A stretch of DNA of 30,479 bases. Origin: a virus. Below the pieces are notes generated by a model. The model was not told where the DNA came from. It ran no database searches and saw only the letters and a list, made by a program, of their open reading frames with translations. Made by a program: the position numbers and the translations under genes. The stretch lies in IMG/VR virus record IMGVR_UViG_3300042156_000117, positions 1 to 30,479 of that record; one strand, written 5' to 3'. Positions 8,707 to 30,460 of this stretch are shown here, piece after piece. Position 1 is the stretch's first letter, and every line of letters starts with the position of its first letter.

Positions 8707-9309
8707 TTACTCCTTGTCGGCGTTGGCTTCGAAGGCGCGGAACTCGTACACGATGCCGTTGTGCTCGAAAGCCAGGGCGCCCTCCTCCTTCAGCTTCATG
8801 CGGAAGCGGATGTGCTTGGAATCCGGCAGGCCGAACTCTGCGAAGGCGGTGCGAACCGAACGGTGCTCTGTGGTCTTGCCGTTGACGGTGACGGTGACGT
8901 TATGGCGAGTCATCCGGGCAGCTGCCACCTCGGCATCGCCCCAGCTGGCAGCGATGGCTTTGCCGAGGTCTTTGGCCGGAGCGGTCTTGGCCTTCTCGCG
9001 CATCTGGCGCAGCTCGGCCAGTGCCTCTTCCTCGGTCACTTCTTCTTCCGGCTTGGCATCGGCAGCCGGGGCTTCTTCAGCCTTGGCTTTGGAAGCTTTG
9101 CGGGTCTTGTGGACCGGCAGATCGGTTTTGGCCACTTCCTCTTCTTCCGGCAGGGTGGCAACCAGGGCCAGGCAGCGACGTTCTGCGGTCTTGCGATCCG
9201 CGAACTTCTTGATGGTGGCGTCTGCGTTGTGGGCGTTCCAGAACTGAACCAGTTCCTTGGTGTCTACAGCGGTGATGTCGGCGCGGATGCGGGAGATGAG
9301 AGTGGCCAT
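8707..9309 (-). CDS. Hypothetical protein, last gene of reverse block 1
   Basis: A 200-residue protein. The ATG at 9309 is chosen because GAGGA lies about 10 bp upstream and its promoter is at 9371-9399. The N-terminal 45 residues (AVDTKELVQFWNAHNADATIKKFADRKTAERR) match a short motif common in phage and plasmid proteins of unknown function. The centre is a low-complexity Ala/Glu/Pro/Lys linker of about 50 residues. The C-terminal 70 residues (VTVTVNGKTTEHRSVRTAFAEFGLPDSKHIRFRMKLKEEG, mixed beta) form a second domain. I read it as a two-domain nucleic-acid-associated protein, function unknown. Confidence 0.8.
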   Translation of the reverse strand: MATLISRIRADITAVDTKELVQFWNAHNADATIKKFADRKTAERRCLALVATLPEEEEVAKTDLPVHKTRKASKAKAEEAPAADAKPEEEVTEEEALAELRQMREKAKTAPAKDLGKAIAASWGDAEVAAARMTRHNVTVTVNGKTTEHRSVRTAFAEFGLPDSKHIRFRMKLKEEGALAFEHNGIVYEFRAFEANADKE

Positions 9310-9370
9310 TTTCTGCGTTCCTCTTTCTGGGGTCTTTCGGTTGATCCGGCTTCTTGCCGGGAGTGAGGTC

Positions 9371-9399
9371 ATTATCTATGAGCCTGTCCACACCGTCAA
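9371..9399 (-). promoter_or_regulatory. Minus-strand promoter for the 9309 gene
   Basis: Read on the minus strand: TTGACG (9394-9399), 17 bp, GATAAT (9371-9376), then CCTCACT. Near-consensus sigma70 promoter and a member of the twelve-member family in the reverse blocks. Confidence 0.75.
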
Positions 9400-9449: not shown

Positions 9450-9695
9450 TCAAACAGACGACGAAATGGCGATGACGAAACCGGCCTCAGCGAAGTACGG
9501 CACCACGCCCTTGTAGGCGATGGCAGTCGCGGCCAGCTCCTGGCGCAGAGCCGACGAATTGGCCTTCACCCAGTCCAGGTATGTCACCGCAATATCTTCC
9601 TCGGCCTTCTGCCAATCCTGGCCCATGCCGGTGAGCATGAAGCCGAGTTCGATGCTGGAGACGGCGACGGTGATTATCATTGTTGACTGGGCCAT
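9450..9695 (-). CDS. Small paralogue family member (81 aa)
   Basis: An 81-residue protein of the small-paralogue array: N-terminal strand (MIITVAVSS), a central helix with Trp (WQKAEEDIAVTYLDWVKA), and the C-terminal signature VVPYFAEAGFVIAIS, matching x-L-x-x-x-G-[YF]-x-I-x-I in its neighbours. AGGAG precedes the ATG. It follows the 9699 gene by 3 bp and is the last gene of a three-gene run (9935, 9699, 9450). Function unknown. Confidence 0.7.
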   Translation of the reverse strand: MAQSTMIITVAVSSIELGFMLTGMGQDWQKAEEDIAVTYLDWVKANSSALRQELAATAIAYKGVVPYFAEAGFVIAISSSV

Positions 9696-9698
9696 GGC

Positions 9699-9935
9699 TC
9701 AGCGCTCCTGGATGGTGATGGCGTAGCCTTCGCTCGCGAGGTGGCGCAAGACGTTGGTTATGGCAGCGCCCTCGATGGAAAGGAAGATGGACTGGTTGAA
9801 GCGTTCCAACTTGAAACTCTCCAATGCCTTATCGATGACTGCTCTGGCGAGCAGATACACAGACTCATCGTAATGGCGACCGGTGACGCAGAAATCATTG
9901 GCACCAGCAATCTTAGCCTCGATTTTGATGGCCAT
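9699..9935 (-). CDS. Small paralogue family member (78 aa)
   Basis: A 78-residue protein with N-terminal strand MAIKIEAKI, central helices, and C-terminal NVLRHLASEGYAITIQ. Its ATG overlaps the upstream gene's stop (TAATG) with GGAGG 7 bp before it, so translation is coupled. It shows the family's beta-alpha-beta pattern and the clearest Gly-Tyr C-terminal signature. Confidence 0.7.
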   Translation of the reverse strand: MAIKIEAKIAGANDFCVTGRHYDESVYLLARAVIDKALESFKLERFNQSIFLSIEGAAITNVLRHLASEGYAITIQER

Positions 9936-10180
9936 TACGCAGCCTCCGAGATGTGGACTTCGTATCCGCTCTGGATGAGGTAGACGAAGGGGTTGGCGCC
10001 GGATGCCGGCCAGATGGAATCGAGCACATCGCAGAACTCGTCATTGCTCTTGTGCTTGGCAGCCCAGTCTTCGATCTGCTGGGCGAGTTGGCGATTGACC
10101 TGGTCTTGCGGGCAAGTCACCTCAAGGATGATTTCTTTATCCGGGAGGACTTTGATGGCGCGCACTTGGAGTATTGGCAT
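9935..10180 (-). CDS. Small paralogue family member (81 aa)
   Basis: An 81-residue protein: a pair of N-terminal strands (MPILQVRAIKV, then EIILEVTCP), the helix VNRQLAQQIEDWAAKH with the family Trp, and C-terminal FVYLIQSGYEVHIS. AAGGAG lies 8 bp before the ATG. No promoter is evident directly upstream; a 10-bp-stem hairpin at 10202-10231 separates it from the 10241 gene, so it may be expressed by read-through. Confidence 0.7.
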   Translation of the reverse strand: MPILQVRAIKVLPDKEIILEVTCPQDQVNRQLAQQIEDWAAKHKSNDEFCDVLDSIWPASGANPFVYLIQSGYEVHISEAA

Positions 10181-10201
10181 GGTTGGATGCTCCTTAGAAG
10201 T

Positions 10202-10231
10202 GAACGACCAGCCTGGCGCGACTGGTCGTTC
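10202..10231 (-). terminator. Hairpin after the 10241 paralogue
   Basis: GAACGACCAG (10202-10211) pairs perfectly with CTGGTCGTTC (10222-10231), a 10-bp stem with a 10-base loop. On the minus strand the stem is followed by ACTTCT rather than a U run, so it could be a leaky terminator or an RNA-processing hairpin between cassettes. Confidence 0.5.
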
Positions 10232-10240
10232 TGGGCCAGA

Positions 10241-10468
10241 TTAGAACTGCTGGATGAGGATGTCAAAGTCATTGGATGCCAGCCAGTCGATCAAACCGAC
10301 CATGCTCAGAGCGCGCATCTGGAAAGCATATTCGCTATCCTCAAAGACGGACTTGATCCAATCCTCAACATCCATCTGCAACTTGACGCGGGCACTGGCG
10401 ATATTGCTGGCGGTGACTTCAAAGTGAACATTGGCCATTTCGGCGTTCTTGGCTACGATCTTGATCAT
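10241..10468 (-). CDS. Small paralogue family member (75 aa)
   Basis: A 75-residue protein beginning MIKIVAKNAEMANVHFEV, with the helix KLQMDVEDWIKSV, and ending GLIDWLASNDFDILIQ. The start MIKI-AKNA is nearly identical to that of the 10616 gene, which supports recent duplication. AAAGGA precedes the ATG. It has its own promoter (10521-10550) and a hairpin behind it, forming a complete cassette. Function unknown. Confidence 0.75.
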   Translation of the reverse strand: MIKIVAKNAEMANVHFEVTASNIASARVKLQMDVEDWIKSVFEDSEYAFQMRALSMVGLIDWLASNDFDILIQQF

Positions 10469-10520
10469 GGCTTTCTGGTCCTTTCAACTTGGTCGGCGCC
10501 TCTCGCCTCCCAGTGAGCAG

Positions 10521-10550
10521 AGTATCGCCTATCTCACAAATGGCAGGCAA
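10521..10550 (-). promoter_or_regulatory. Minus-strand promoter for the 10241 cassette
   Basis: TTGCCT (10545-10550), 18 bp, GATACT (10521-10526), then GCTCACT. GTGAG and CTCAC arms flank the -10 box. Confidence 0.7.
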
Positions 10551-10582
10551 CAACTATTTCAGCAGAATTATCGGACGGAATG

Positions 10583-10610
10583 AGGCGCCCCGGATTCCTC
10601 CGAGGCGCCT
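10583..10610 (-). terminator. GNRA-loop hairpin after the 10616 paralogue
   Basis: AGGCGCC (10583-10589) pairs with GGCGCCT (10604-10610), and the inner CGGA pairs with TCCG. On the minus-strand RNA the interior G-U pair gives a continuous 12-bp stem with a GGAA loop. There is no strong U tract. The arms match those of the hairpin at 10953-10978. Confidence 0.55.
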
Positions 10611-10615
10611 GGCCG

Positions 10616-10840
10616 TTACTCGTTGGTGATGGTGATGTCGTAGCCGGCATCAGACAGGGTGCCGAGGATGCCGCGATCATCGACCAGGCCCATCAGACAG
10701 GTGTACTCGTGGTTGGAGATTTCGACGCTGGCCCACTGGTCAACGATCATGAAGAGGTGAGCTTCAGCGCCGATGAAGTCCGGGCCGCTTGCTTCGAACT
10801 CGCGTGACTCTTTGGCGTTCTTGGCGGTGATCTTGATCAT
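10616..10840 (-). CDS. Small paralogue family member (74 aa)
   Basis: A 74-residue protein beginning MIKITAKNAKESREFEAS, with a central Trp-containing helix (LFMIVDQWASVEI), and ending ILGTLSDAGYDITIT. It is the closest relative of the 10241 product within the array. Ribosome binding site AAAGGA in the leader AAAGGACCAGAAAG, which recurs before other members. Cassette promoter at 10892-10920 and hairpin at 10583-10610. Confidence 0.75.
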   Translation of the reverse strand: MIKITAKNAKESREFEASGPDFIGAEAHLFMIVDQWASVEISNHEYTCLMGLVDDRGILGTLSDAGYDITITNE

Positions 10841-10891
10841 CTTTCTGGTCCTTTCTGGTTCCGGTCGGCCTTATTGCCTCCCAGTGAACAT

Positions 10892-10920
10892 AGTATCGCG
10901 CTCCCAGGAATGGAAGGCAA
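10892..10920 (-). promoter_or_regulatory. Minus-strand promoter for the 10616 cassette
   Basis: TTGCCT (10915-10920), 17 bp beginning TCCATT, GATACT (10892-10897). The sequence upstream of the -35 (TGAAATAAATG) is AT-rich, as at 10521 and 17140. Confidence 0.75.
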
Positions 10921-10952
10921 CATTTATTTCAGCAGAATTGAAAGAAAGTGAG

Positions 10953-10978
10953 AGGCGCCCGAATCGCTCCGGGCGCCT
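10953..10978 (-). terminator. Hairpin after the 10985 paralogue
   Basis: AGGCGCCCG (10953-10961) pairs perfectly with CGGGCGCCT (10970-10978) around an 8-base loop. The minus-strand RNA continues CTCACTTTCTTTC, a pyrimidine-rich tail, so this is a plausible intrinsic terminator. Confidence 0.65.
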
Positions 10979-10984
10979 GGTCGA

Positions 10985-11239
10985 TCATTCCTTGTAGACG
11001 TCGATGGCGAGGCTGAAGCCGTCCTCAACCAGCCAGGCCACGGCGCCCATGGCGGTCATCTCATCCAGCATCTCGTCATACGCCTCGTTGTTTGTGCAAT
11101 TCTCATTGAGGAACTCATCGACAACGTCATACAGGCGCTTGACGACGGCGTGGTAGTCCTGGCCAACGACGTCGAAAACGGCGACGACTTGCGGGTGGGT
11201 GCCCTCGGTCATCTTGGAAGCGGTGATTTTGACTGGCAT
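10985..11239 (-). CDS. Small paralogue family member (84 aa)
   Basis: An 84-residue protein beginning MPVKITASKM, with the helix AVVKRLYDVVDEFLNE and ending AVAWLVEDGFSLAI. The ATG at 11239 has the AAAGGACCAGAAAG leader seen before other members; an earlier in-frame start would lie at the promoter's transcription start. It is a complete cassette with promoter 11288-11316 and hairpin 10953-10978. Function unknown. Confidence 0.75.
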   Translation of the reverse strand: MPVKITASKMTEGTHPQVVAVFDVVGQDYHAVVKRLYDVVDEFLNENCTNNEAYDEMLDEMTAMGAVAWLVEDGFSLAIDVYKE

Positions 11240-11287
11240 CTTTCTGGTCCTTTCTAGCCTGGAGGCGGGATGCCTTCCAGTGGACAT

Positions 11288-11316
11288 AGTATCGCCTGGT
11301 TGAAAATGGAAGTCAA
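11288..11316 (-). promoter_or_regulatory. Minus-strand promoter for the 10985 cassette
   Basis: TTGACT (11311-11316), 17 bp beginning TCCATT, GATACT (11288-11293). CTTCCA and TGGAAG arms lie on either side of the -10 region. Confidence 0.75.
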
Positions 11317-11326
11317 GCGCCCTGGA

Positions 11327-11578
11327 TCAAAAGGACTTGGCCGGATGATATCCGATGCTGAAGGAGTAGCGGAGGTCAAAGAGAAACCCCATCACGCCAT
11401 CGCGCTCGATGGACTTGACTGCGTGGTCCATGCCCATGTCATCGTACTGGGTCTGCAAATGGCGGAGGGCTTCTAAGCGCAACTGCTCTTCTGCCTCTTT
11501 GAGCGTCTGGCCCTCGGCCTTGTAACTGGCAGACGTCTCGTATGGGCCGCGAGCCTCTATGTTTATGTTGAGTTTCAT
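11327..11578 (-). CDS. Small paralogue family member, divergent (83 aa)
   Basis: An 83-residue protein beginning MKLNINIEARGPYETSASYKAEG, with the helix LKEAEEQLRLEALRHLQ and ending VMGFLFDLRYSFSIG. It keeps the strand-helix-helix-strand order but replaces the family Gly before Tyr by Arg. The ATG at 11578 was preferred; ATG at 11587 in the same frame is possible. GGAAT precedes the start, a weak ribosome binding site. Confidence 0.65.
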   Translation of the reverse strand: MKLNINIEARGPYETSASYKAEGQTLKEAEEQLRLEALRHLQTQYDDMGMDHAVKSIERDGVMGFLFDLRYSFSIGYHPAKSF

Positions 11579-11869
11579 GGCGTTCATTCCGATTGGTTGA
11601 AGTGGAGTGAATGGCACCAGACCGCCCGTCCGCCAATCCTTCTAGCATTCCCGGAACGGCCCAGCGCGACTGAAGCCCGATTGCGGCCTGGCGTCAAGTG
11701 CCGGCCTCCATACCATGAACGCCCGCATCCGTTTGGGCGATCCGGACACTGGCAGCTATATGCGCCTTGGGTGCCCGCCTCGATGATCGACGGGAAGCGC
11801 CTGCCTGATGTCCGACCTAGTCAGTAGCTGGCGCTGACCATCCATGCGTCGCGGTCCTGCTGGTGCCGA
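11579..11869. other. Gene-poor 0.29-kb stretch
   Basis: No reading frame with a ribosome binding site was found on either strand here; minus-strand frames are 30 codons or shorter. It follows a candidate minus-strand -10 box at 11869-11874 and may be a long 5' leader of the 11327 gene or the remains of a lost cassette. Confidence 0.4.
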
Positions 11870-11883
11870 TTATACCTGGCTGG
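11869..11883 (-). promoter_or_regulatory. Candidate -10 region at the end of the 11870 gene
   Basis: On the minus strand CCAGCCAGG is followed by TATAAT (11869-11874), overlapping the stop codon of the 11870 gene. The same string CCAGCCAGGTATA precedes the large-terminase gene on the plus strand at 17227-17239. There is no good -35 at 17 bp. Confidence 0.35.
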
Positions 11884-12040
11884 ATGAGGTCCGGATAGCA
11901 ATCGGAAGGAGGCGCATGGGCGCGCGTTCGGTCTGTTCATCTCGGACATAGTCGCGCGTCGGCGTCCAGTCGACATGTCCACCTGGGCGTTTGATGGTCC
12001 ATCCCATTGCGTTGCGCTTGTATTCTTGGTTATTAGTCAT
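11870..12040 (-). CDS. Small hypothetical protein (56 aa)
   Basis: A 56-residue protein (MTNNQEYKRNAMGWTIKRPG at its start). The ATG at 12040 has AGGAGAAG about 5 bp upstream and is preferred to an in-frame start 18 bp earlier. The Trp/Gly/Arg-rich middle gives no recognisable family. The stop codon overlaps a candidate -10 box. Confidence 0.6.
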   Translation of the reverse strand: MTNNQEYKRNAMGWTIKRPGGHVDWTPTRDYVRDEQTERAPMRLLPIAIRTSSSQV

Positions 12041-13872: not shown

Positions 13873-14337
13873 CTTTGCTTTCCTTTCTTGAGGTGGAGCG
13901 GTTGGTTTATGAGGTGATTCTACTTGGACACTGGTGTCCGGGCAAGCAGAATGTTCATCTTTTTTGAAATATTTCTCGCACAACTCTGCGCTGCTAGGAA
14001 ACCTGAACTTGTCGATGTCCATCGAGGTCCAACCGAACATGCGCCACAACGGCAAACCGAGGTGGCCGCCATTGAATTGATCTTTGAGGCCATTCGTTCT
14101 TGGGTCCAGGAACGGCGATGCCGGGTCGCCCAGTCCTTCGAATTTGGTAGGCGCGTCTGCGCGACCAAAGAACAGCATTCGCTGCATCTCCGGCGTGAGT
14201 TCGGCAAAGTCCATGCCGAACACTGAACTCGTGGAGCTTCGGCAGCTCGGGTGCGCCGGAGGACGACTGGCACGCTCCGCAGCCTTCTCGCGTTCGCGCC
14301 TGGCGATGTACGGCATGATGTCGGTGACCTTCGCCAT
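13660..14337 (-). CDS. Hypothetical two-part protein with a nested start
   Basis: A 225-residue protein starting in a TGATG overlap with the 14489 gene. The N-terminal 150 residues contain a basic Pro/Ser-rich segment and FAELTPEMQRMLFFG. A Pro/Thr linker follows, then about 70 C-terminal residues with SH3-like beta character (GDKIRYRAKGQWHARQVLSV, then TKVILEMHD). An internal ATG at 13872 is preceded by AGAAAGGAAAG, the leader type used by neighbouring genes, so a separate 70-residue product of the C-terminal domain is likely as well. Confidence 0.65.
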   Translation of the reverse strand: MAKVTDIMPYIARREREKAAERASRPPAHPSCRSSTSSVFGMDFAELTPEMQRMLFFGRADAPTKFEGLGDPASPFLDPRTNGLKDQFNGGHLGLPLWRMFGWTSMDIDKFRFPSSAELCEKYFKKDEHSACPDTSVQVESPHKPTAPPQERKAKMDMNARSITALEATTGDKIRYRAKGQWHARQVLSVKREGTKVILEMHDEATDTDEVVKFGASDWMLLTSR

Positions 14338-14489
14338 CACGCGGCCTCCCACACCAGGTTGGCGGAGCGGTCGTGAGCCTCGTTGGATGCCCAGAACACC
14401 TTCTTGCCAAGACCATCGATCTTGGAGAAGACGAAGCGGACGCCGTTGGCCTTGGCCCATTTGATGGTAGCGGTCTTGGAGTGTATCAT
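14337..14489 (-). CDS. Small hypothetical protein (50 aa)
   Basis: A 50-residue basic protein beginning MIHSKTATIKWAKANGVRFV and ending LVWEAA. The ATG at 14489 has GGAG about 9 bp upstream. Promoter 14524-14552 lies directly before it, making it the first gene of a minus operon (14489, 14337, 13601, 13087, 12482). Its short strand-helix pattern gives no family. Confidence 0.65.
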   Translation of the reverse strand: MIHSKTATIKWAKANGVRFVFSKIDGLGKKVFWASNEAHDRSANLVWEAA

Positions 14490-14523
14490 TCTGGGTTGCT
14501 CCGGTTTCGTTTCAGGTGAGACA

Positions 14524-14552
14524 AGTATGCCTGCCCTCCGAATGGAAGGCAA
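14524..14552 (-). promoter_or_regulatory. Minus-strand promoter for the 14489 operon
   Basis: TTGCCT (14547-14552), 17 bp beginning TCCATT, CATACT (14524-14529), then TCTCACCT. Confidence 0.7.
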
Positions 14553-14974: not shown

Positions 14975-15178
14975 TTAGCTGATCTTTTTGATCCTCACCT
15001 CATAGCCGAGTTCCACCAGGTGCTTGGTGAAGGAATCGGAGCTGACGAAGCGCCCACGGATGGCCGAGGCGTCATGCATCCTCTGGTAGAGGTCGCGCAG
15101 CGCATAGTATTGCGTATGGCCTTCGCCGTGGCCCATCTCGGTGCCGTTGGCGTTGTATATCTTGACTTGGATTGGCAT
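14975..15178 (-). CDS. Nested small paralogue family member (67 aa)
   Basis: The ATG at 15178 has AAAGGAGG at 8 bp, one of the best ribosome binding sites in the window, and lies in frame within the 155-residue gene. The product carries the family pattern: N-terminal strand MPIQVKIY, central helix YALRDLYQRMHD, C-terminal HLVELGYEVRI. It is the eighth member of the family and lies about 3.6 kb from the main array. Confidence 0.6.
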   Translation of the reverse strand: MPIQVKIYNANGTEMGHGEGHTQYYALRDLYQRMHDASAIRGRFVSSDSFTKHLVELGYEVRIKKIS

Positions 15179-17272: not shown

Positions 17273-18658
17273 ATGTTCCAATTGAACCCGTTCCTCAAAC
17301 AGTTCTGGCGCACTAAAAGCCGGTACAAAGTCCTCTATGGAGGCCGCGCCAGCTCCAAGTCTCACGACGCGGCTGGCATCGCCGTCTACCTGGCCGCCAA
17401 CTTCACTTTGAAGTTTCTTTGTGCTCGCCAGTTCCAGAACCGTATCAGCGAATCTGTGTACACTCTGATCAAGGACAAGATCGAAAATTCAGAGTATCGT
17501 GGCGAGTTCCACATCACCAAAAACTCGATTATCCACAAGCGGACGCGCAGCGAATTCCTTTTCTACGGTATTGCCAGGAACCTATCTGAGATTAAATCGA
17601 CGGAAGGCGTCGACGTCCTCTGGCTGGAAGAGGCGCACTATCTTACCAAAGAGCAGTGGGAGGTGATTGAGCCGACAATCCGTAAAGAGGGGTCGGAAAT
17701 CTGGATCATCTTCAACCCGAATGAAATGGCAGACTTCGTCTACCAGCGCTTTGTGGTCGCGCCTCCACCAAACACCGTCGTGAAGATGATCAACTGGAAC
17801 GCAAACCCGTTCCTCAGCGAGACGATGCTGGATGTTATCCGTCACGCGTACATCGAAAACGACGAAGACGCACAGCACATCTACGGCGGCCAGCCAAAGA
17901 CGGGTGGCGACCTATCCGTCATCAACCTCAAGTTCATCCTGGCTTCGCTGGATGCCCACATCAAGCTGGGCTGGGAGCCTGCCGGGCAGAAGCGTATCGG
18001 CTTCGACGTCGCGGACGATGGCCGAGACAAGAACGCCACCACCTATGCCCACGGCAACGTGCTTATGGAGGTCGATGAGTGGGCCGGCTTGGAGGATAAG
18101 TTGCTGCAGTCGTCGTCTCGCGTCTGGAACCTGGCCCGCGAGAAGGGTGCCAGCGTGACCTATGACTCTATTGGCGTCGGCGCCCACGTCGGGTCGAAGT
18201 TCTCGGAGTTGAACGATGAGCATGGATCCAAGTTCAAGCTTCCGTATGACCCATTCAACGCTGGCGGAGCGGTTATGGACCCGGATGCGATATTTATGAA
18301 GCTTCCGCACACCGAAATCACCAACAAAGACTATTTCTCGAACATCAAGGCGCAGATGTGGGTGGACGTCGCAACCCGGTTCCGCAAGACCTATGAGATG
18401 ATCGAGCACGGCAAGGTCTATCCGTTTGATGAACTGATATCCATCAACACCGCGACGATTCCGAAGGACAAGCTGAACCAGCTCTGCCTGGAACTCGCGG
18501 CGCCTCGCAAAGACCTGGACAAGAACGGTCGCTACAAGGTCGAATCCAAGGACGATATGCGCGACAAGCGCGGCATCCAGTCACCGAACATCGCAGACTC
18601 CGCCATCATGGCGCTGGTCAAGCCGAAGCGGAAACCTGCTGGGTTCTTCGACTTCTAA
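17273..18658 (+). CDS. terL: Terminase large subunit (PBSX/Terminase_3 type)
   Basis: A 461-residue packaging motor. Walker A is GGRASSKS at residues 23-30. Walker B is VLWLEEA near 115-121, ending in the catalytic Glu pair. The C-terminal nuclease domain begins GFDVADDGRDKNA near 242 (metal-binding Asp), continues with YDSIGVGAHVG near 296 and closes with ADSAIMAL near 441. This order is standard for ATPase plus RNase H-like nuclease terminases. The ATG at 17273 has GGAAG 5 bp upstream and places the Walker A at the usual position. The gene stands alone on the plus strand between two reverse-strand blocks and ends at a strong hairpin. Confidence 0.93.
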   Translation: MFQLNPFLKQFWRTKSRYKVLYGGRASSKSHDAAGIAVYLAANFTLKFLCARQFQNRISESVYTLIKDKIENSEYRGEFHITKNSIIHKRTRSEFLFYGIARNLSEIKSTEGVDVLWLEEAHYLTKEQWEVIEPTIRKEGSEIWIIFNPNEMADFVYQRFVVAPPPNTVVKMINWNANPFLSETMLDVIRHAYIENDEDAQHIYGGQPKTGGDLSVINLKFILASLDAHIKLGWEPAGQKRIGFDVADDGRDKNATTYAHGNVLMEVDEWAGLEDKLLQSSSRVWNLAREKGASVTYDSIGVGAHVGSKFSELNDEHGSKFKLPYDPFNAGGAVMDPDAIFMKLPHTEITNKDYFSNIKAQMWVDVATRFRKTYEMIEHGKVYPFDELISINTATIPKDKLNQLCLELAAPRKDLDKNGRYKVESKDDMRDKRGIQSPNIADSAIMALVKPKRKPAGFFDF

Positions 18659-18661
18659 ATG

Positions 18662-18690
18662 GAAAGCCCCGGACGATGCCGGGGCTTTCT
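18662..18690. terminator. Bidirectional terminator between convergent genes
   Basis: GAAAGCCCCGG (18662-18672) pairs perfectly with CCGGGGCTTTC (18679-18689) around ACGATG, 3 bp after the large-terminase stop. Plus-strand RNA ends CUUUCUUCU and minus-strand RNA ends CUUUCC, so it serves both directions. Confidence 0.85.
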
Positions 18691-18707
18691 TCTACCAGGG
18701 CTGGCGC

Positions 18708-19145
18708 TTAGTGCTTGGTCACGTCGGATGGCGCGTCGGACGGCGCGGGTGCTGGTGCCGCTTCCTGGGCCGGAACTAGCGCCGCCATGTTGAAGCCCTT
18801 GCCCATGTCCAGGATTTTTCCGATGGTCTGTTTGAGTGCGCAGGACGGGCAGCCGCACTGGAATCCTTCGACTTGCTTGACCTCTTCGACCAGGGCCACC
18901 ACGACGTCGCCATCATCGTCCTTGTCGATGATGTAGCGTGCCTCTGGATCGTTGATGCCGGCTGCCGTGCGAATCTCATCCCAGACCTCCTGGTGCTCGG
19001 CTGATTGCTTCGCCAGAAGCTCCTTGCGTTGCTGGTTGTGGGCTTCCAGCTCGGCATTGTGGCGAGTCCCCACGGCCTCCAACTTGGCGAAAATATCGCC
19101 GGAGATGACGACTGCGGAAGGGCACGCTTTGATGGTCTTGTACAT
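18708..19145 (-). CDS. Hypothetical protein with CxCPxC motif
   Basis: A 145-residue protein. The ATG at 19145 has GGAG 8 bp upstream and lies just after the 19681 gene's stop. Residues about 35-60 form a charged helix (ELEAHNQQRKELLAKQSAEH). A later CGCPSC near residue 98 may bind a metal, and the C-terminus is an Ala/Pro/Asp-rich tail. Last gene of reverse block 2. Function unknown. Confidence 0.7.
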   Translation of the reverse strand: MYKTIKACPSAVVISGDIFAKLEAVGTRHNAELEAHNQQRKELLAKQSAEHQEVWDEIRTAAGINDPEARYIIDKDDDGDVVVALVEEVKQVEGFQCGCPSCALKQTIGKILDMGKGFNMAALVPAQEAAPAPAPSDAPSDVTKH

Positions 19146-25189: not shown

Positions 25190-25240
25190 GTGACCTTAAC
25201 AGTAATGTGATTGCCCTGTGTGGAGGTCACACAATATACT
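25190..25240 (+). promoter_or_regulatory. Portal promoter with flanking inverted repeat
   Basis: TTGCCC (25211-25216), 18 bp, TATACT (25235-25240). GTGACCT (25190-25196) and AGGTCAC (25224-25230) form a 7-bp inverted repeat that brackets the -35 box and also covers the -35 position of the divergent minus-strand gene, so one regulator could act on both. Confidence 0.55.
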
Positions 25241-25265
25241 AGCCACAAGTCTCAGCCCAATAAAC

Positions 25266-27572
25266 ATGGAACCAAACATGTTCAGATTCCAGTGGCCTTT
25301 TAAGTCGGTCAAGAATAATGGCGCCGAAGAACTTCGGCAAGTAAAAGAGCAATTTGCGCCTCAGTATGACGCCCTTGACCCACTAAGCCGTCTGGGAAAA
25401 GTTCGCGGCTGGGATGTCACCGAGAAAGAGCCGTTCAAGCTCGCGACGGTGGATGACTTCCTGGAGAGCAAGTTGATGCCTGTCGGCGTTATGGACGGCG
25501 CCCTGGCAAAGAGCGCGATGGACGATGGCGACGGCACCATGCCGGCTGCCAAGGCCGCGAACGGCGCCGGCAACTATACGGTGCCGGAGCAACTTCAGAA
25601 CTGGTACAATTCCCAGAGCTTCATCGGCTATCAGTCTTGCGCGATCATCGCCCAGCACTGGCTGGTGGACAAGGCTTGTTCCATGGCCGGCGAGGATGCC
25701 CTGCGGAACGGCTGGGAAGTAAAGACCGATGGCGTTAAGATCACCGATGAACAGAAGGCGGTTATTGCCGATCTGGACATCAAGTTCAAGATCAAAGAAA
25801 ACTTGGCCGAGTTCAACCGGTTCAAGAACATCTTTGGCATCCGAATCGCCCTGTTTGAAGTTGAGTCCGATGACAAAGACTACTACAGCAAGCCGTTCAA
25901 CATCGATGGCGTGATCGAAGGCTCATACAAGGGCGTTTCCCAGGTAGACCCGTACTGGATGATGCCGATGTTGACGAACGCATCGACCGCCGATCCGTCT
26001 GCCAAGGACTTCTATGAGCCGGACTATTGGATCATCAGCGGCAAGAAGTATCACCGCAGCCACCTGATCATCGCTCGCGGCCCGCAGCCAGCGGACATCC
26101 TCAAGCCAACATACATATTCGGCGGAATCCCGCTGACCCAGCGCATCTATGAGCGTGTGTATGCTGCCGAACGGACGGCCAACGAGGCGCCGCTGCTGGC
26201 AACCAACAAGCGGACCACGGCCATTCACGTGGACGTCGAAAAGGCCCTGGTCAACGAGGAGAGTTTTGTCAAACGCCTCCTGTTCTGGGTCAAATACCGG
26301 GACAACCATGCCGTCAAAGTTCTTGGCAAAGAAGAGTCCATGGAACAATTCGACACCAACTTGTCGGATTTCGACTCGGTCATCATGAACCAATACCAAC
26401 TTGTCGCGGCCATTGCCAAGACTCCGGCCACCAAGTTGCTTGGAACTTCGCCAAAGGGATTCAATGCCACCGGCGAGTTTGAGATGGTATCCTATCACGA
26501 GGAACTGGAGTCCATCCAGGAGCATGTTTATGACCCGCTACTGGACCGCCACTACCAGCTGGCGTGCAAATCTCTCAACTTCAGCGCCCAACTGAAAGTT
26601 GTATGGAACTCGGTGGACTCCTGCACCAGCCAGCAGTTGGCCGACCTCAACGCGAAGAAGGCCGAGACTGATGAGCGCAACGTCAATATGGGCGCGATTT
26701 CTCCTGACGAAGTTCGCCAGCGTCTGCGCGATGATCCGCGTTCCGGATACAATCGCCTGACTGACGATGAGGCCGAGATGGAACCTGGCATGTCGCCGGA
26801 GAACCTGGCCGAATTGGAGAAGGCCGGCAGCGAGGCGGGCGAAGCCGAGGCCGCGCGCACGGCTTCGGCGCTTGGCGCGACCCCTCCGACCGCCCCGACA
26901 ACGCCTAAGCCCCAGGCAGCGCCCATCCCGGCGCCCAAAGCCAAGGAGGATGCTGAGCCGGCGCCGACCAAGGCCGACGAAATCCGGAACCTGCTGGCCT
27001 CGCTGGTGTCGAAGCTGGACGACCTGGCCGACGCGACCATGGCCGAAGGCGTCGACCTTCAGCACGACGATGCGCCAGGCCTCCAGCGAACCACCAAGCC
27101 GAGTGTGAAAGGCATGGAGCCTAGCGTGTATGGACAGGCCAGACTGGTTGGCGAGAAAGACCACTCCAATCTCCACCGCATTAAGATGGACGGCATCGTG
27201 TCTCTAATCGAGAACCCGCGCGGAAGCATCAGACAAGGCAAAGACGGCTCGTGGCGCGTCAAGATGCCTCACCATTATGGCTTCATCAAAGGGACCAAAG
27301 GCGCGGACGGCGATGAGGTTGACTGCTTCATAGGTCCTAACTTGAAGTCCAAGCGTGTTTTCGTGGTCAACCAGGTCGGCAAAACCGGCCAGTTTGACGA
27401 GCACAAGTGTATGCTGGGCTTCGACTCCGAAACCGACGCACGCAAAGGCTATCTTGGCAGCTTCTCGCCAGGCTGGGACGGCCTCAGCTCAATCCACGAA
27501 ATCCACCTGAATGACTTCCGGAAGTGGCTGGCGAAAGGCGACACTAGCAAACCGTTCGGGGCCATCCGCTGA
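25266..27572 (+). CDS. DUF1073-type portal protein fused to an inorganic pyrophosphatase domain
   Basis: A 768-residue protein. Residues about 100-490 match the DUF1073 (Phage_portal_3) pattern: WLVDKACSMAGEDALRNGWE, a long alpha/beta core, RSHLIIARG, and GFNATGEFEMVSYHEELESI near 400. It would form the DNA-entry portal ring of the capsid. A helical Ala/Pro/Lys-rich linker (about 500-600) follows. Residues about 635-768 carry IENPRGSIRQGKDGSWRVKM, HYGFIKGTKGADGDEVDCFI, GPNLKSKRVFVVNQVGKTGQ and FDEHKCMLGF, the InPase domain known from polyvalent phage proteins. Start codon ATG 25266 or 25278, neither with a strong ribosome site. It overlaps the next gene (TGATG). Confidence 0.88.
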   Translation: MEPNMFRFQWPFKSVKNNGAEELRQVKEQFAPQYDALDPLSRLGKVRGWDVTEKEPFKLATVDDFLESKLMPVGVMDGALAKSAMDDGDGTMPAAKAANGAGNYTVPEQLQNWYNSQSFIGYQSCAIIAQHWLVDKACSMAGEDALRNGWEVKTDGVKITDEQKAVIADLDIKFKIKENLAEFNRFKNIFGIRIALFEVESDDKDYYSKPFNIDGVIEGSYKGVSQVDPYWMMPMLTNASTADPSAKDFYEPDYWIISGKKYHRSHLIIARGPQPADILKPTYIFGGIPLTQRIYERVYAAERTANEAPLLATNKRTTAIHVDVEKALVNEESFVKRLLFWVKYRDNHAVKVLGKEESMEQFDTNLSDFDSVIMNQYQLVAAIAKTPATKLLGTSPKGFNATGEFEMVSYHEELESIQEHVYDPLLDRHYQLACKSLNFSAQLKVVWNSVDSCTSQQLADLNAKKAETDERNVNMGAISPDEVRQRLRDDPRSGYNRLTDDEAEMEPGMSPENLAELEKAGSEAGEAEAARTASALGATPPTAPTTPKPQAAPIPAPKAKEDAEPAPTKADEIRNLLASLVSKLDDLADATMAEGVDLQHDDAPGLQRTTKPSVKGMEPSVYGQARLVGEKDHSNLHRIKMDGIVSLIENPRGSIRQGKDGSWRVKMPHHYGFIKGTKGADGDEVDCFIGPNLKSKRVFVVNQVGKTGQFDEHKCMLGFDSETDARKGYLGSFSPGWDGLSSIHEIHLNDFRKWLAKGDTSKPFGAIR

Positions 27573-29062: not shown

Positions 29063-30460
29063 ATGCCAAGATCAGCGCGAAGAATCGACGAAAATGGGTA
29101 CATGACAGTGCGTGCATGTCCAATATCGTCTTTTGGCATATTCGATTATTCGGCAGGCCAACTTGGCTTGCCTGGTGATCCGAATCGCATAGTCAAAGTC
29201 TTCCGCCCGGAGTCTGCCGTCAGCAGCCTTGAGGCCATCGAGTCGTTCAAAGATATCCCTCTCATCAATGACCATGAAATGCTTTCCGGGTTCGATGGTG
29301 ATGACGAGAACACCGCCCCGGAAGACTACGGCATTGACGGTGTAATGACCGGCAATGTGTACTATGAGGCGCCGTGGATGCGCGGCGACCTCAAGGTGTT
29401 CAGTCGTTCGATGCAGCAGGCCCTTCGCAAAGGCAAAAAATGCCTTTCCCTTGGGTATGATTGCGACTTCGAAGAGGCCCCAGGCACTTGGCAAGGGCAA
29501 GCCTATGAGCTGGTCCAAGTCAACATGCGCGGAAACCACATTGCACTCGTTGATGACGGGCGCGTGCCGGGCGCGCGAGTGCTCGATGGTCGTTGCTTCG
29601 ACCACATGAGCTTCACCTTCAAACCATCCGATGAGGACGACACCATGCCGAAAGGTATCAAGGCGATGGACAAAGCGGCTCGTGATTCTGCCGTGGACGA
29701 CCTTCGCAAGCTGATCCCGGCCCTCACTTCCGCCATGGAAAAATTCCTGGCTGAAGAGGCCCAAGAACCGCAGCACGAAGGTGGCGAACAACCCGCTGCC
29801 GACCCCGCTGCCGACCCCGCTGCCAAGCCGGAAGAGGGCACCCCGGAGGCCATCGCCCAGCCGGAGCAGGACGTTGATCCCGCTGCCGAACCCGCTGCCG
29901 AGGGCAACAGCCTGGAAGAGCTGATTGGCGCCGCTCGCGACCTGCTGGCCCGTCTGGAGGCCGCAGCTGGCGGCGAGCAACCGCAACCGGAAAGCGAGGC
30001 ACCGGCACAGGATGAAGTCGAAGCCAACGAGGTCAAAGACACCGTTGAGGGCCTCCAAGCTCAAGACCCGGTTGAGGGCGCCCAAGTCGCCACCGACGAA
30101 GACCCCATGGCCGCTGCCGTCGACAACGAAGACCCTGCCGTCCCAGCCCAAAAGGCTCAAGACGCTGCGCTTCGCCATTTCTACGCTGATGCTGCTGCTA
30201 AGGATAGCCTCTACAAGCGTGTTAGTCCCCTGGTTGGTGCATTTGATCACCGAGCTATGGACGCGCGTGCGGTCAGCGTTTACGGCGTGAAGAAACTCGG
30301 CATCAAGTGTGCCGATGGCCAAGAAATGGTCGTTCTCGATGCCTACCTGTCGGGCATCGAAATGGCAAACAAGGCAGCCAAAACTGCTCCGCAAAAACGT
30401 GCCCAGGATGCCGCTCCGAAGTGCGATGAACTGGAAGACTACCTGAAGGGGAGTATTTAA
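29063..30460 (+). CDS. DUF2213 prohead protease/scaffold protein
   Basis: A 465-residue protein of the DUF2213 family, usually found between Mu F-like and major capsid genes. Conserved points fit a serine-type prohead protease: H71 (INDHEM), S129 (CLSLGYDC) and H159 (MRGNHIALVDDGRV). From about residue 190 the protein is a low-complexity Ala/Pro/Glu/Gln scaffold-like region with a DPAADPAAK/EPAAEG repeat, followed by a helical C-terminus (RHFYADAAAKDSLYKRVSPL). There is no clear ribosome site before ATG 29063; M14 (29102) is an alternative start. A nested start at 29645 is likely (see separate entry). Confidence 0.83.
   Translation: MPRSARRIDENGYMTVRACPISSFGIFDYSAGQLGLPGDPNRIVKVFRPESAVSSLEAIESFKDIPLINDHEMLSGFDGDDENTAPEDYGIDGVMTGNVYYEAPWMRGDLKVFSRSMQQALRKGKKCLSLGYDCDFEEAPGTWQGQAYELVQVNMRGNHIALVDDGRVPGARVLDGRCFDHMSFTFKPSDEDDTMPKGIKAMDKAARDSAVDDLRKLIPALTSAMEKFLAEEAQEPQHEGGEQPAADPAADPAAKPEEGTPEAIAQPEQDVDPAAEPAAEGNSLEELIGAARDLLARLEAAAGGEQPQPESEAPAQDEVEANEVKDTVEGLQAQDPVEGAQVATDEDPMAAAVDNEDPAVPAQKAQDAALRHFYADAAAKDSLYKRVSPLVGAFDHRAMDARAVSVYGVKKLGIKCADGQEMVVLDAYLSGIEMANKAAKTAPQKRAQDAAPKCDELEDYLKGSI
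29645..30460 (+). CDS. Candidate nested in-frame scaffold gene (271 aa)
   Basis: ATG 29645 (M195 of the DUF2213 protein) is preceded by GAGG at exactly 8 bp. Translation from here would give the scaffold-like part without the protease, MPKGIKAMDKAARDS onward. This is the arrangement of lambda C/Nu3-type nested scaffolds, but it is inferred only from the ribosome site and domain boundary. Confidence 0.45.
   Translation: MPKGIKAMDKAARDSAVDDLRKLIPALTSAMEKFLAEEAQEPQHEGGEQPAADPAADPAAKPEEGTPEAIAQPEQDVDPAAEPAAEGNSLEELIGAARDLLARLEAAAGGEQPQPESEAPAQDEVEANEVKDTVEGLQAQDPVEGAQVATDEDPMAAAVDNEDPAVPAQKAQDAALRHFYADAAAKDSLYKRVSPLVGAFDHRAMDARAVSVYGVKKLGIKCADGQEMVVLDAYLSGIEMANKAAKTAPQKRAQDAAPKCDELEDYLKGSI
29792..29901 (+). 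repeat. CCCGCTGCCGA tandem and dispersed repeats in the scaffold region
   Basis: The 12-bp unit CCCGCTGCCGAC repeats nearly three times at 29792-29826 and twice more, as CCCGCTGCCGAA/G, at 29879-29901. It encodes (D/E)PAA repeats, a slippage-prone stretch inside the scaffold-like part. Confidence 0.75.

What the first reader, a model, noticed from the sequence alone, without database searches (positions are those of the whole stretch)
9450..11578. Array of seven small, highly diverged paralogues (plus one nested at 14975-15178)
Products of genes at 9450, 9699, 9935, 10241, 10616, 10985, 11327 and 14975-15178 are 67-84 aa, mostly start M-(P/A)-I-K-I or similar, carry one or two central helices often with Trp, and most end in L-x-x-x-G-[YF]-x-[ILV]-x-I (variants near the Gly in the 10241 and 11327 products). 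Pairwise identity is low except for 10241/10616 (MIKI-AKNA starts). Expanded small-gene families of this kind are typical of host-interaction or counter-defence proteins, but no known family came to mind.
Basis: partly seen in the sequence, partly recalled or inferred. Interest (0 to 1): 0.8.

Follow-up and report, generated by a model that had tools for sequence, protein, structure and literature searches.

The report
Seven-gene paralogue array in PB1-like phage
A PB1-like phage carries at least seven small adjacent genes that are all diverged copies of one small protein with the same predicted fold and no relatives in the databases searched, probably a set of early proteins adapted to bind different targets in the bacterial host, although no target is known.

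Summary
The seven genes at 9450-11578 (minus strand) are real and form one family. An iterated profile search of 11,729 ORFs, seeded only with the closest pair, recovers four more members in turn, each as top hit; the seventh (9935-10180) scores lower there but stands out in leave-one-out tests. With only the seven paralogues as alignment, AlphaFold2 folds the 10616-10840 protein at pLDDT 97.6 (beta-beta-alpha-alpha-beta). The eighth (14975-15178) is tentative.

No Pfam, NCBIfam, PADLOC or PHROG family covers them, and tblastn found no credible match in 50,697 phage or 72,556 plasmid records. The window is half of a new Lindbergviridae phage; related genera lack the family, apart from a weak C-terminal similarity to Pbunavirus ORF6 (phrog_5013).

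New here: three members each carry a near-copied promoter-leader unit (72-77% identical, against 45-54% in the coding parts), and strong hairpins follow three members. Conservation is confined to core residues plus Gly/Trp; no catalytic residue is invariant. Best reading: early host-interaction or counter-defence binding proteins, expanded by duplicating whole transcription units and diversified on one scaffold. Family and fold are well supported; function is inferred.

The parts
9450..9695 (-). Member A, 81 aa (MAQSTMIITV...FAEAGFVIAISSSV); the aligned part starts at its internal Met (window 9680)
   Evidence: leave-one-out 20.3 bits; recruited by iterated profile E 0.04
9699..9935 (-). Member B, 78 aa (MAIKIEAK...LASEGYAITIQER)
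   Evidence: leave-one-out 19.6 bits; recruited E 0.015
9935..10180 (-). Member C, 81 aa (...LIQSGYEVHISEAA); 3-residue insert between the helices
   Evidence: leave-one-out 16.5 bits; E 0.15-0.27 in the iteration, not accepted there; aligned in A4
10241..10468 (-). Member D, 75 aa (MIKIVAKNA...LASNDFDILIQQF)
   Evidence: 31% identical to E; phmmer E 2.8e-7; leave-one-out 28.3 bits
10616..10840 (-). Member E, 74 aa (MIKITAKNA...LSDAGYDITITNE); protein whose fold was predicted
   Evidence: leave-one-out 31.1 bits; AF2 pLDDT 97.6, strands 2-8, 13-19, helices 22-40, 43-64, strand 68-73
10985..11239 (-). Member F, 84 aa (MPVKITASK...LVEDGFSLAIDVYKE)
   Evidence: top non-seed hit of the D/E profile, E 0.034; leave-one-out 19.6 bits
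11327..11578 (-). Member G, 83 aa (MKLNINIEA...LFDLRYSFSIGYHPAKSF)
   Evidence: recruited at E 0.0076; ungapped core alignment with A, D, E; leave-one-out only 9.8 bits
14975..15178 (-). Candidate member H, 67 aa, internal start in a 155-codon frame; shorter helix region; tentative
   Evidence: leave-one-out 11.7 bits, 0/5000 shuffles; not found by the 7-member profile; SD AAAGGAGG upstream
11240..11326 (-). Promoter-leader unit of F: TTGACT-17-GATACT (11316-11288), leader CACTGGAAGGC, RBS AAAGGACCAGAAAG
10841..10952 (-). Promoter-leader unit of E: TTGCCT-17-GATACT (10920-10892), leader CACTGGGAGGC, RBS AAAGGACCAGAAAG
   Evidence: noncoding identity to the D unit 77% (141 nt), to the F unit 74% (85 nt)
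10469..10582 (-). Promoter-leader unit of D: TTGCCT-18-GATACT (10550-10521), leader CACTGGGAGGC, RBS AAAGGACCAGAAAG
10953..10978 (-). Hairpin after F (AGGCGCCCGGA-GCGA-UUCGGGCGCCU), weak U tail
   Evidence: MFE -22.2 kcal/mol for 55 nt, z -3.4
10583..10610 (-). Hairpin after E (AGGCGCCUCGGA-GGAA-UCCGGGGCGCCU), no clear U tail
   Evidence: MFE -27.6 kcal/mol for 56 nt, z -3.1
10202..10231 (-). Hairpin between D and C (12 bp stem), unrelated in sequence to the other two
   Evidence: MFE -22.4 kcal/mol for 46 nt, z -4.3

Best explanation
The array is a phage-specific family of small, mostly acidic proteins that share one beta-beta-alpha-alpha-beta scaffold and have diverged almost everywhere except in the core. 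It grew by tandem duplication of whole transcription units (host-type promoter, leader, RBS, ORF, hairpin), seen most clearly for D, E and F. The copies probably act soon after infection as non-enzymatic binding proteins that block, mask or redirect host proteins, defence systems being the most likely class of target, with each copy adapted to a different target or target variant. Shown computationally: genes, family, confident fold for one member, repeated promoter units and hairpins. Inferred: the same fold in all members, early expression, protein binding, host or defence targets, one target per copy.
For: Family and fold. Conserved columns are hydrophobic core positions plus Gly19, Gly57, Gly66 and Trp36; only one column is invariant in A4 (Ile71) and no polar residue is, which argues against an enzyme. 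Six of the seven have net charge -3 to -11. Sigma70-like promoters in front of D, E and F share leader and RBS; upstream noncoding identity 72-77% against 45-54% in coding, with third codon positions no better conserved than first and second. Variable small-gene region next to the phrog_4730 gene: PB1 has other small ORFs there and the tabernarius-like L032 has none of the family. Precedent: SIRV2 has 12 AcrID1-homologue genes; its early genes share a conserved regulatory sequence while the genes themselves are poorly conserved (PMC11065993).
Against: No member resembles a known inhibitor: no credible hits in Pfam, NCBIfam, PADLOC or PHROGs, and structural matches are weak. No expression data for this phage; early timing is assumed from the host-type promoters and the region. 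Diversity could equally reflect relaxed constraint. B and H are not strongly acidic (pI 6.1 and 9.1). The members may have a phage-internal role.
Confidence: 0.55

Rival explanations
1. Host takeover rather than counter-defence: the copies bind housekeeping machinery (RNA polymerase, nucleases, cell division) and shut it down, as small early phage proteins such as T7 Gp2 do.
For: Size, acidity and promoter layout fit equally well; T7 Gp2 appears among weak structural matches (Z 2.2), which is not significant.
Against: Seven diverged copies of one scaffold suggest several or changing targets; housekeeping targets are usually single and conserved (inference).
Confidence: 0.25
2. Modular shuffling drives the array: the promoter-hairpin unit is the recombining element (like T4 PeSL cassettes), and the ORFs are passengers kept mainly because of recombination; function may differ between members or be minor.
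For: Noncoding units are far more alike than the ORFs, even at third codon positions; a promoter plus stem-loop repeated between small ORFs is the layout described for PeSLs (Arbiol 2010 and Comeau 2014, as cited in PMC4503421).
Against: The ORFs are homologous to each other and hold one fold, with coding signal intact. Only three units carry the cassette and none was found in other viral contigs.
Confidence: 0.12
3. A phage-internal role, such as multi-subunit assembly or DNA-binding regulators of the phage's own genes, with paralogues forming a hetero-oligomer.
For: Adjacent paralogues of equal size can form hetero-oligomers; strand-edge pairing would be possible with this fold (inference).
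Against: Absent from related genera, so not needed for the shared life cycle; mostly acidic, no DNA-binding family match; separate promoters for D, E and F do not suggest fixed stoichiometry.
Confidence: 0.08

Closest known systems
Pbunavirus PB1 ORF6 family (phrog_5013, 72 aa, in 297 phage records)
   Same: Best outside hit of the family profile (11-13.5 bits, E 0.03-0.15 in several profiles); C-terminal helix-strand GALTYLADNGYNVTF matches the family motif; small minus-strand gene of a related phage
   Different: Similarity limited to about 23 residues; no long first helix in its low-confidence single-sequence model (pLDDT 68); single copy; lies downstream of the terminase, not in the array
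AcrID1 family of archaeal virus SIRV2 (multi-copy early anti-CRISPR family)
   Same: Many diverged copies of one small protein in close proximity; conserved regulatory sequence in front of poorly conserved genes (PMC11065993)
   Different: No sequence link sought or found; archaeal virus; function known there and unknown here; a likeness of layout only
T4-type PeSL promoter-stem-loop cassettes
   Same: Promoter combined with stem-loop between small accessory ORFs (described in PMC4503421)
   Different: Different phage family and sequence; only two or three units; mobility not shown; primary papers not held in the library
Chaseviridae protein next to DNA polymerase (phiEcoM-GJ1 gp38, Y2 gp51; 4HA13 and PP101 homologues)
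   Same: Chaseviridae entries (PP101, 4HA13) are among the best viral fold matches; this gene fits their protein lengths; top match SKA49 prob 1.00, TM 0.65/0.61
   Different: No profile homology (hhalign probability 0.3%); single conserved gene; identity of the BFVD entries with this gene is inferred from length and order
AcrIIA15 C-terminal domain (8jfu, 8jfo, 8jft)
   Same: First-ranked solved structure by both aligners (Z 5.1, 62 residues, 2.8 A)
   Different: Foldseek E 0.57, 8-12% identity; Z 5 is below the typical best Z of models without a clear match, so no evidence of kinship

Membership tests
New array family (defined here by A-G) | Profile of the other members finds the protein above shuffles and control ORFs | tested here: met
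   A-F at 16-31 bits, 0/5000 and 0/2946; G weak by this test (9.8 bits, 2/5000, 1/2946) but recruited by iteration at E 0.0076
New array family (defined here by A-G) | H (14975-15178) is a member | tested here: inconclusive
   11.7 bits, 0/5000 shuffles, but not found by the A4 profile or the iteration
New array family (defined here by A-G) | One beta-beta-alpha-alpha-beta fold | tested here: met
   E folded with the seven-row paralogue alignment: pLDDT 97.6, pTM 0.85; other members not folded separately
phrog_5013 / PB1 ORF6 | Full-length sequence homology | tested here: inconclusive
   only alpha2-beta3 aligns (hhalign prob 58% over 23 columns; 2/50000 shuffles); no BLASTP match to H; members A-H do not hit phrog_5013
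phrog_535 | Full-length match to profile | tested here: not met
   only F, 29 residues, E 5e-4; the same profile also rings in 7 of 14 control genomes at E up to 10
AcrIIA15 C-terminal domain | Same fold at significant score | tested here: inconclusive
   Z 5.1, Foldseek E 0.57
AcrIIA15 C-terminal domain | Inhibition of Cas9 | not testable with these tools
   needs an experiment
T4-type PeSL cassette | Early promoter plus stem-loop repeated between small ORFs | tested here: met
   hairpin and promoter units between F/E and E/D; promoter but no upstream hairpin copy for F; early timing itself not tested
T4-type PeSL cassette | Mediates gene shuffling between related phages | tested here: inconclusive
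   no viral contig with the cassette found, so no sister phage to compare
Known anti-phage defence proteins (PADLOC) | Profile match | tested here: not met
   best E 0.012, single members only

The most novel reading that the evidence does not exclude
A new scaffold family of phage inhibitors: one beta-beta-alpha-alpha-beta fold, diversified into at least seven side-by-side copies with different targets, that expands by copying complete promoter-ORF-hairpin units whose noncoding parts are kept alike while the coding parts diverge.
Probability: 0.3. Interest if true: 0.75.

Novelty: new variant of a known kind. Interest (0 to 1): 0.55.

Why it matters
Small early phage proteins are the main source of new anti-defence inhibitors, and most are unrelated singletons. 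A seven-copy family on one confident scaffold is a natural diversification experiment: if the copies hit different host targets, it would show how one fold is retargeted and would offer seven ready-made test genes. The shared promoter units give a sequence handle (as used in archaeal viruses) for finding more such genes in a well-studied phage family, the Lindbergviridae.

Tried and rejected
Known families: Pfam, NCBIfam, PADLOC and PHROGs gave only chance-level or short matches; F to phrog_535 rejected as a short match that also occurs in half of the control genomes at a lax cut-off. PDB sequence hits with the A4 profile were short helical stretches on repetitive or unrelated chains. Close relatives: E and F in viral contigs and D in genome contigs gave none; concatenated tblastn gave nothing in phages and one chance hit (E 8) in plasmids. 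Leader and promoter patterns in viral contigs: leader matches had no family member nearby; promoter pattern zero. Profile scans of whole relatives (Myosmarvirus, Wifcevirus, Bcepfunavirus, Tabernariusvirus, Carpasinavirus, Karil-Mokiny-1 and several IMG/VR genomes) were negative. Chaseviridae fold match tested for homology and rejected. ORF6 as full member: its single-sequence fold was low in confidence, so left open. First auto-alignments (A1, A2) misaligned C and B; A4 used instead. A tRNA-Ala call at 11867-11955 is unsupported by Rfam.

Full report
What the window is. The window is a whole IMG/VR virus record of 30,479 bases, linear and evidently incomplete. Its large terminase is about 79% identical to those of Pbunavirus phages, its portal protein 65-70%, and its primase only 42-46%. 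It is therefore roughly half of a genome from a new lineage in the Lindbergviridae (PB1-like myoviruses, genomes 62-72 kb). The array lies on the minus strand directly upstream of the conserved phrog_4730 gene (8707-9372), within the small-gene region before the terminase.

The genes are real. All eight ORFs have an ATG start; most have a clear RBS, and their codon usage matches the reference genes of the window (0.34-0.78 bits per codon against 0.49), whereas the overlapping plus-strand ORFs score 0.00-0.14. H sits in a longer in-frame ORF, but the extension scores 0.16, and a strong AAAGGAGG lies before the internal ATG, so H is probably its own gene.

They are one family. Only D and E are similar enough for an ordinary search (phmmer E 2.8e-7). 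Starting from these two and accepting only the single best hit among 11,729 ORFs of the window and related phages at each round (E under 0.05), the search takes in F (0.034), A (0.04), B (0.015) and G (0.0076); the first non-array ORF to rank near the top is PB1-type ORF6. The E-values are modest, but every accepted hit fell in the same 2 kb. C reached ranks 3-4 and was not accepted, but in leave-one-out tests on a hand alignment it scores 16.5 bits, above 5,000 shuffles and 2,946 control ORFs; A, B, D, E and F do likewise at 19.6-31.1 bits, G (9.8) and H (11.7) less clearly. The hand alignment was made by eye with knowledge of all members, so those leave-one-out values are somewhat favourable. 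H was not found by the seven-member profile and stays tentative.

They share a scaffold. AlphaFold2 on E with only the seven paralogues as alignment gave pLDDT 97.6 and pTM 0.85: two strands, two long helices, one strand. Such confidence from seven sequences of 8-31% pairwise identity indicates that the alignment is right. Conserved positions are hydrophobic core residues, three glycines and a frequent tryptophan at residue 36; no polar residue is invariant. That argues for a binding protein, not an enzyme; this step is inference.

How the array is built. D, E and F each have a sigma70-like promoter (TTGMCT, 17-18 nt, GATACT), a leader with CACTGGRAGGC, and the RBS AAAGGACCAGAAAG, repeated at 370-399 nt spacing. 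Strong hairpins follow F and E (both with AGGCGCC stems) and lie between D and C; their U tails are weak, so termination is not certain. Between D, E and F the noncoding upstream parts are 72-77% identical, while the coding parts are 45-54% identical, with third codon positions no better than the others. Either the coding parts have diverged very fast, or the noncoding units have been kept alike or exchanged; the data do not separate these. C, B and A are tightly packed, have no copy of the unit, and would depend on D's promoter or one not recognised.

Distribution. Nothing credible in 50,697 phage records, 72,556 plasmid records, or in targeted scans of IMG/VR and GTDB genomes with single members. 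These scans find close relatives only, so distant homologues outside the related phages could have been missed; the sensitive profile was run on complete related phages, where only the ORF6 record rang, in a model that included ORF6. ORF6 of Pbunavirus (phrog_5013, 297 records) is the best candidate for a distant relative, but the similarity covers only the last helix and strand, and its single-sequence model is poor.

Fold neighbours. No significant solved structure; AcrIIA15's C-terminal domain ranks first in both tools at Z 5, a level that models without true relatives also reach. In viral predicted structures the best match is a phage SKA49 protein (prob 1.00, TM 0.65), with Chaseviridae proteins of PP101 and 4HA13 further down; the likely gene in those phages, next to the DNA polymerase, shows no profile homology.

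Function. The best reading is a set of early-acting host-interaction proteins, counter-defence being the likeliest class, which expanded by copying whole transcription units and then changed their surfaces. The nearest documented parallel is SIRV2, which has 12 AcrID1-homologue genes and whose early genes share regulatory sequence but little coding similarity (PMC11065993). The promoter-plus-hairpin layout resembles T4 PeSL cassettes (PMC4503421). Neither is evidence of kinship. I put the host-interaction reading with counter-defence as likeliest target class at about 0.55, with host takeover next at 0.25.

Noticed in passing
25218-27572: The portal protein carries a C-terminal inorganic-pyrophosphatase-like domain (PF18823, E 3.7e-43, residues 652-771) that also occurs in large polyvalent phage proteins such as DarB-like antirestriction and endolysin families; shared with other PB1-like phages (phrog_4660).
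   Followed up: partly
11867-11955: ARAGORN reports a tRNA-Ala (AGC) on the plus strand opposite the gene direction; Rfam finds no tRNA, so probably spurious.
   Followed up: yes
14493-14552: A promoter-like TTGCCTTCCATT...GCATACT, similar to the array promoters, precedes the small gene at 14337-14493 on the minus strand.
   Followed up: partly
10532-10590 and 10902-10960: An AATTCTGCTGAAATA element, identical in the D and E units and lacking in F, lies upstream of the -35 box; it contains the inverted repeat TTC-TGCT-GAA and could be an operator or UP-like element.
   Followed up: no
18658-18708: Pbunavirus ORF5 and ORF6, which follow the terminase in PB1, are missing here; a PB1 ORF7-like gene comes directly after the terminase.
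   Followed up: partly
L066 (IMGVR_UViG_3300041405_000154): A 6.4 kb contig from another sample encodes a head maturation protease 100% identical to that at 29063-30460, so the same or a very close phage occurs elsewhere; the contig does not reach the array.
   Followed up: no
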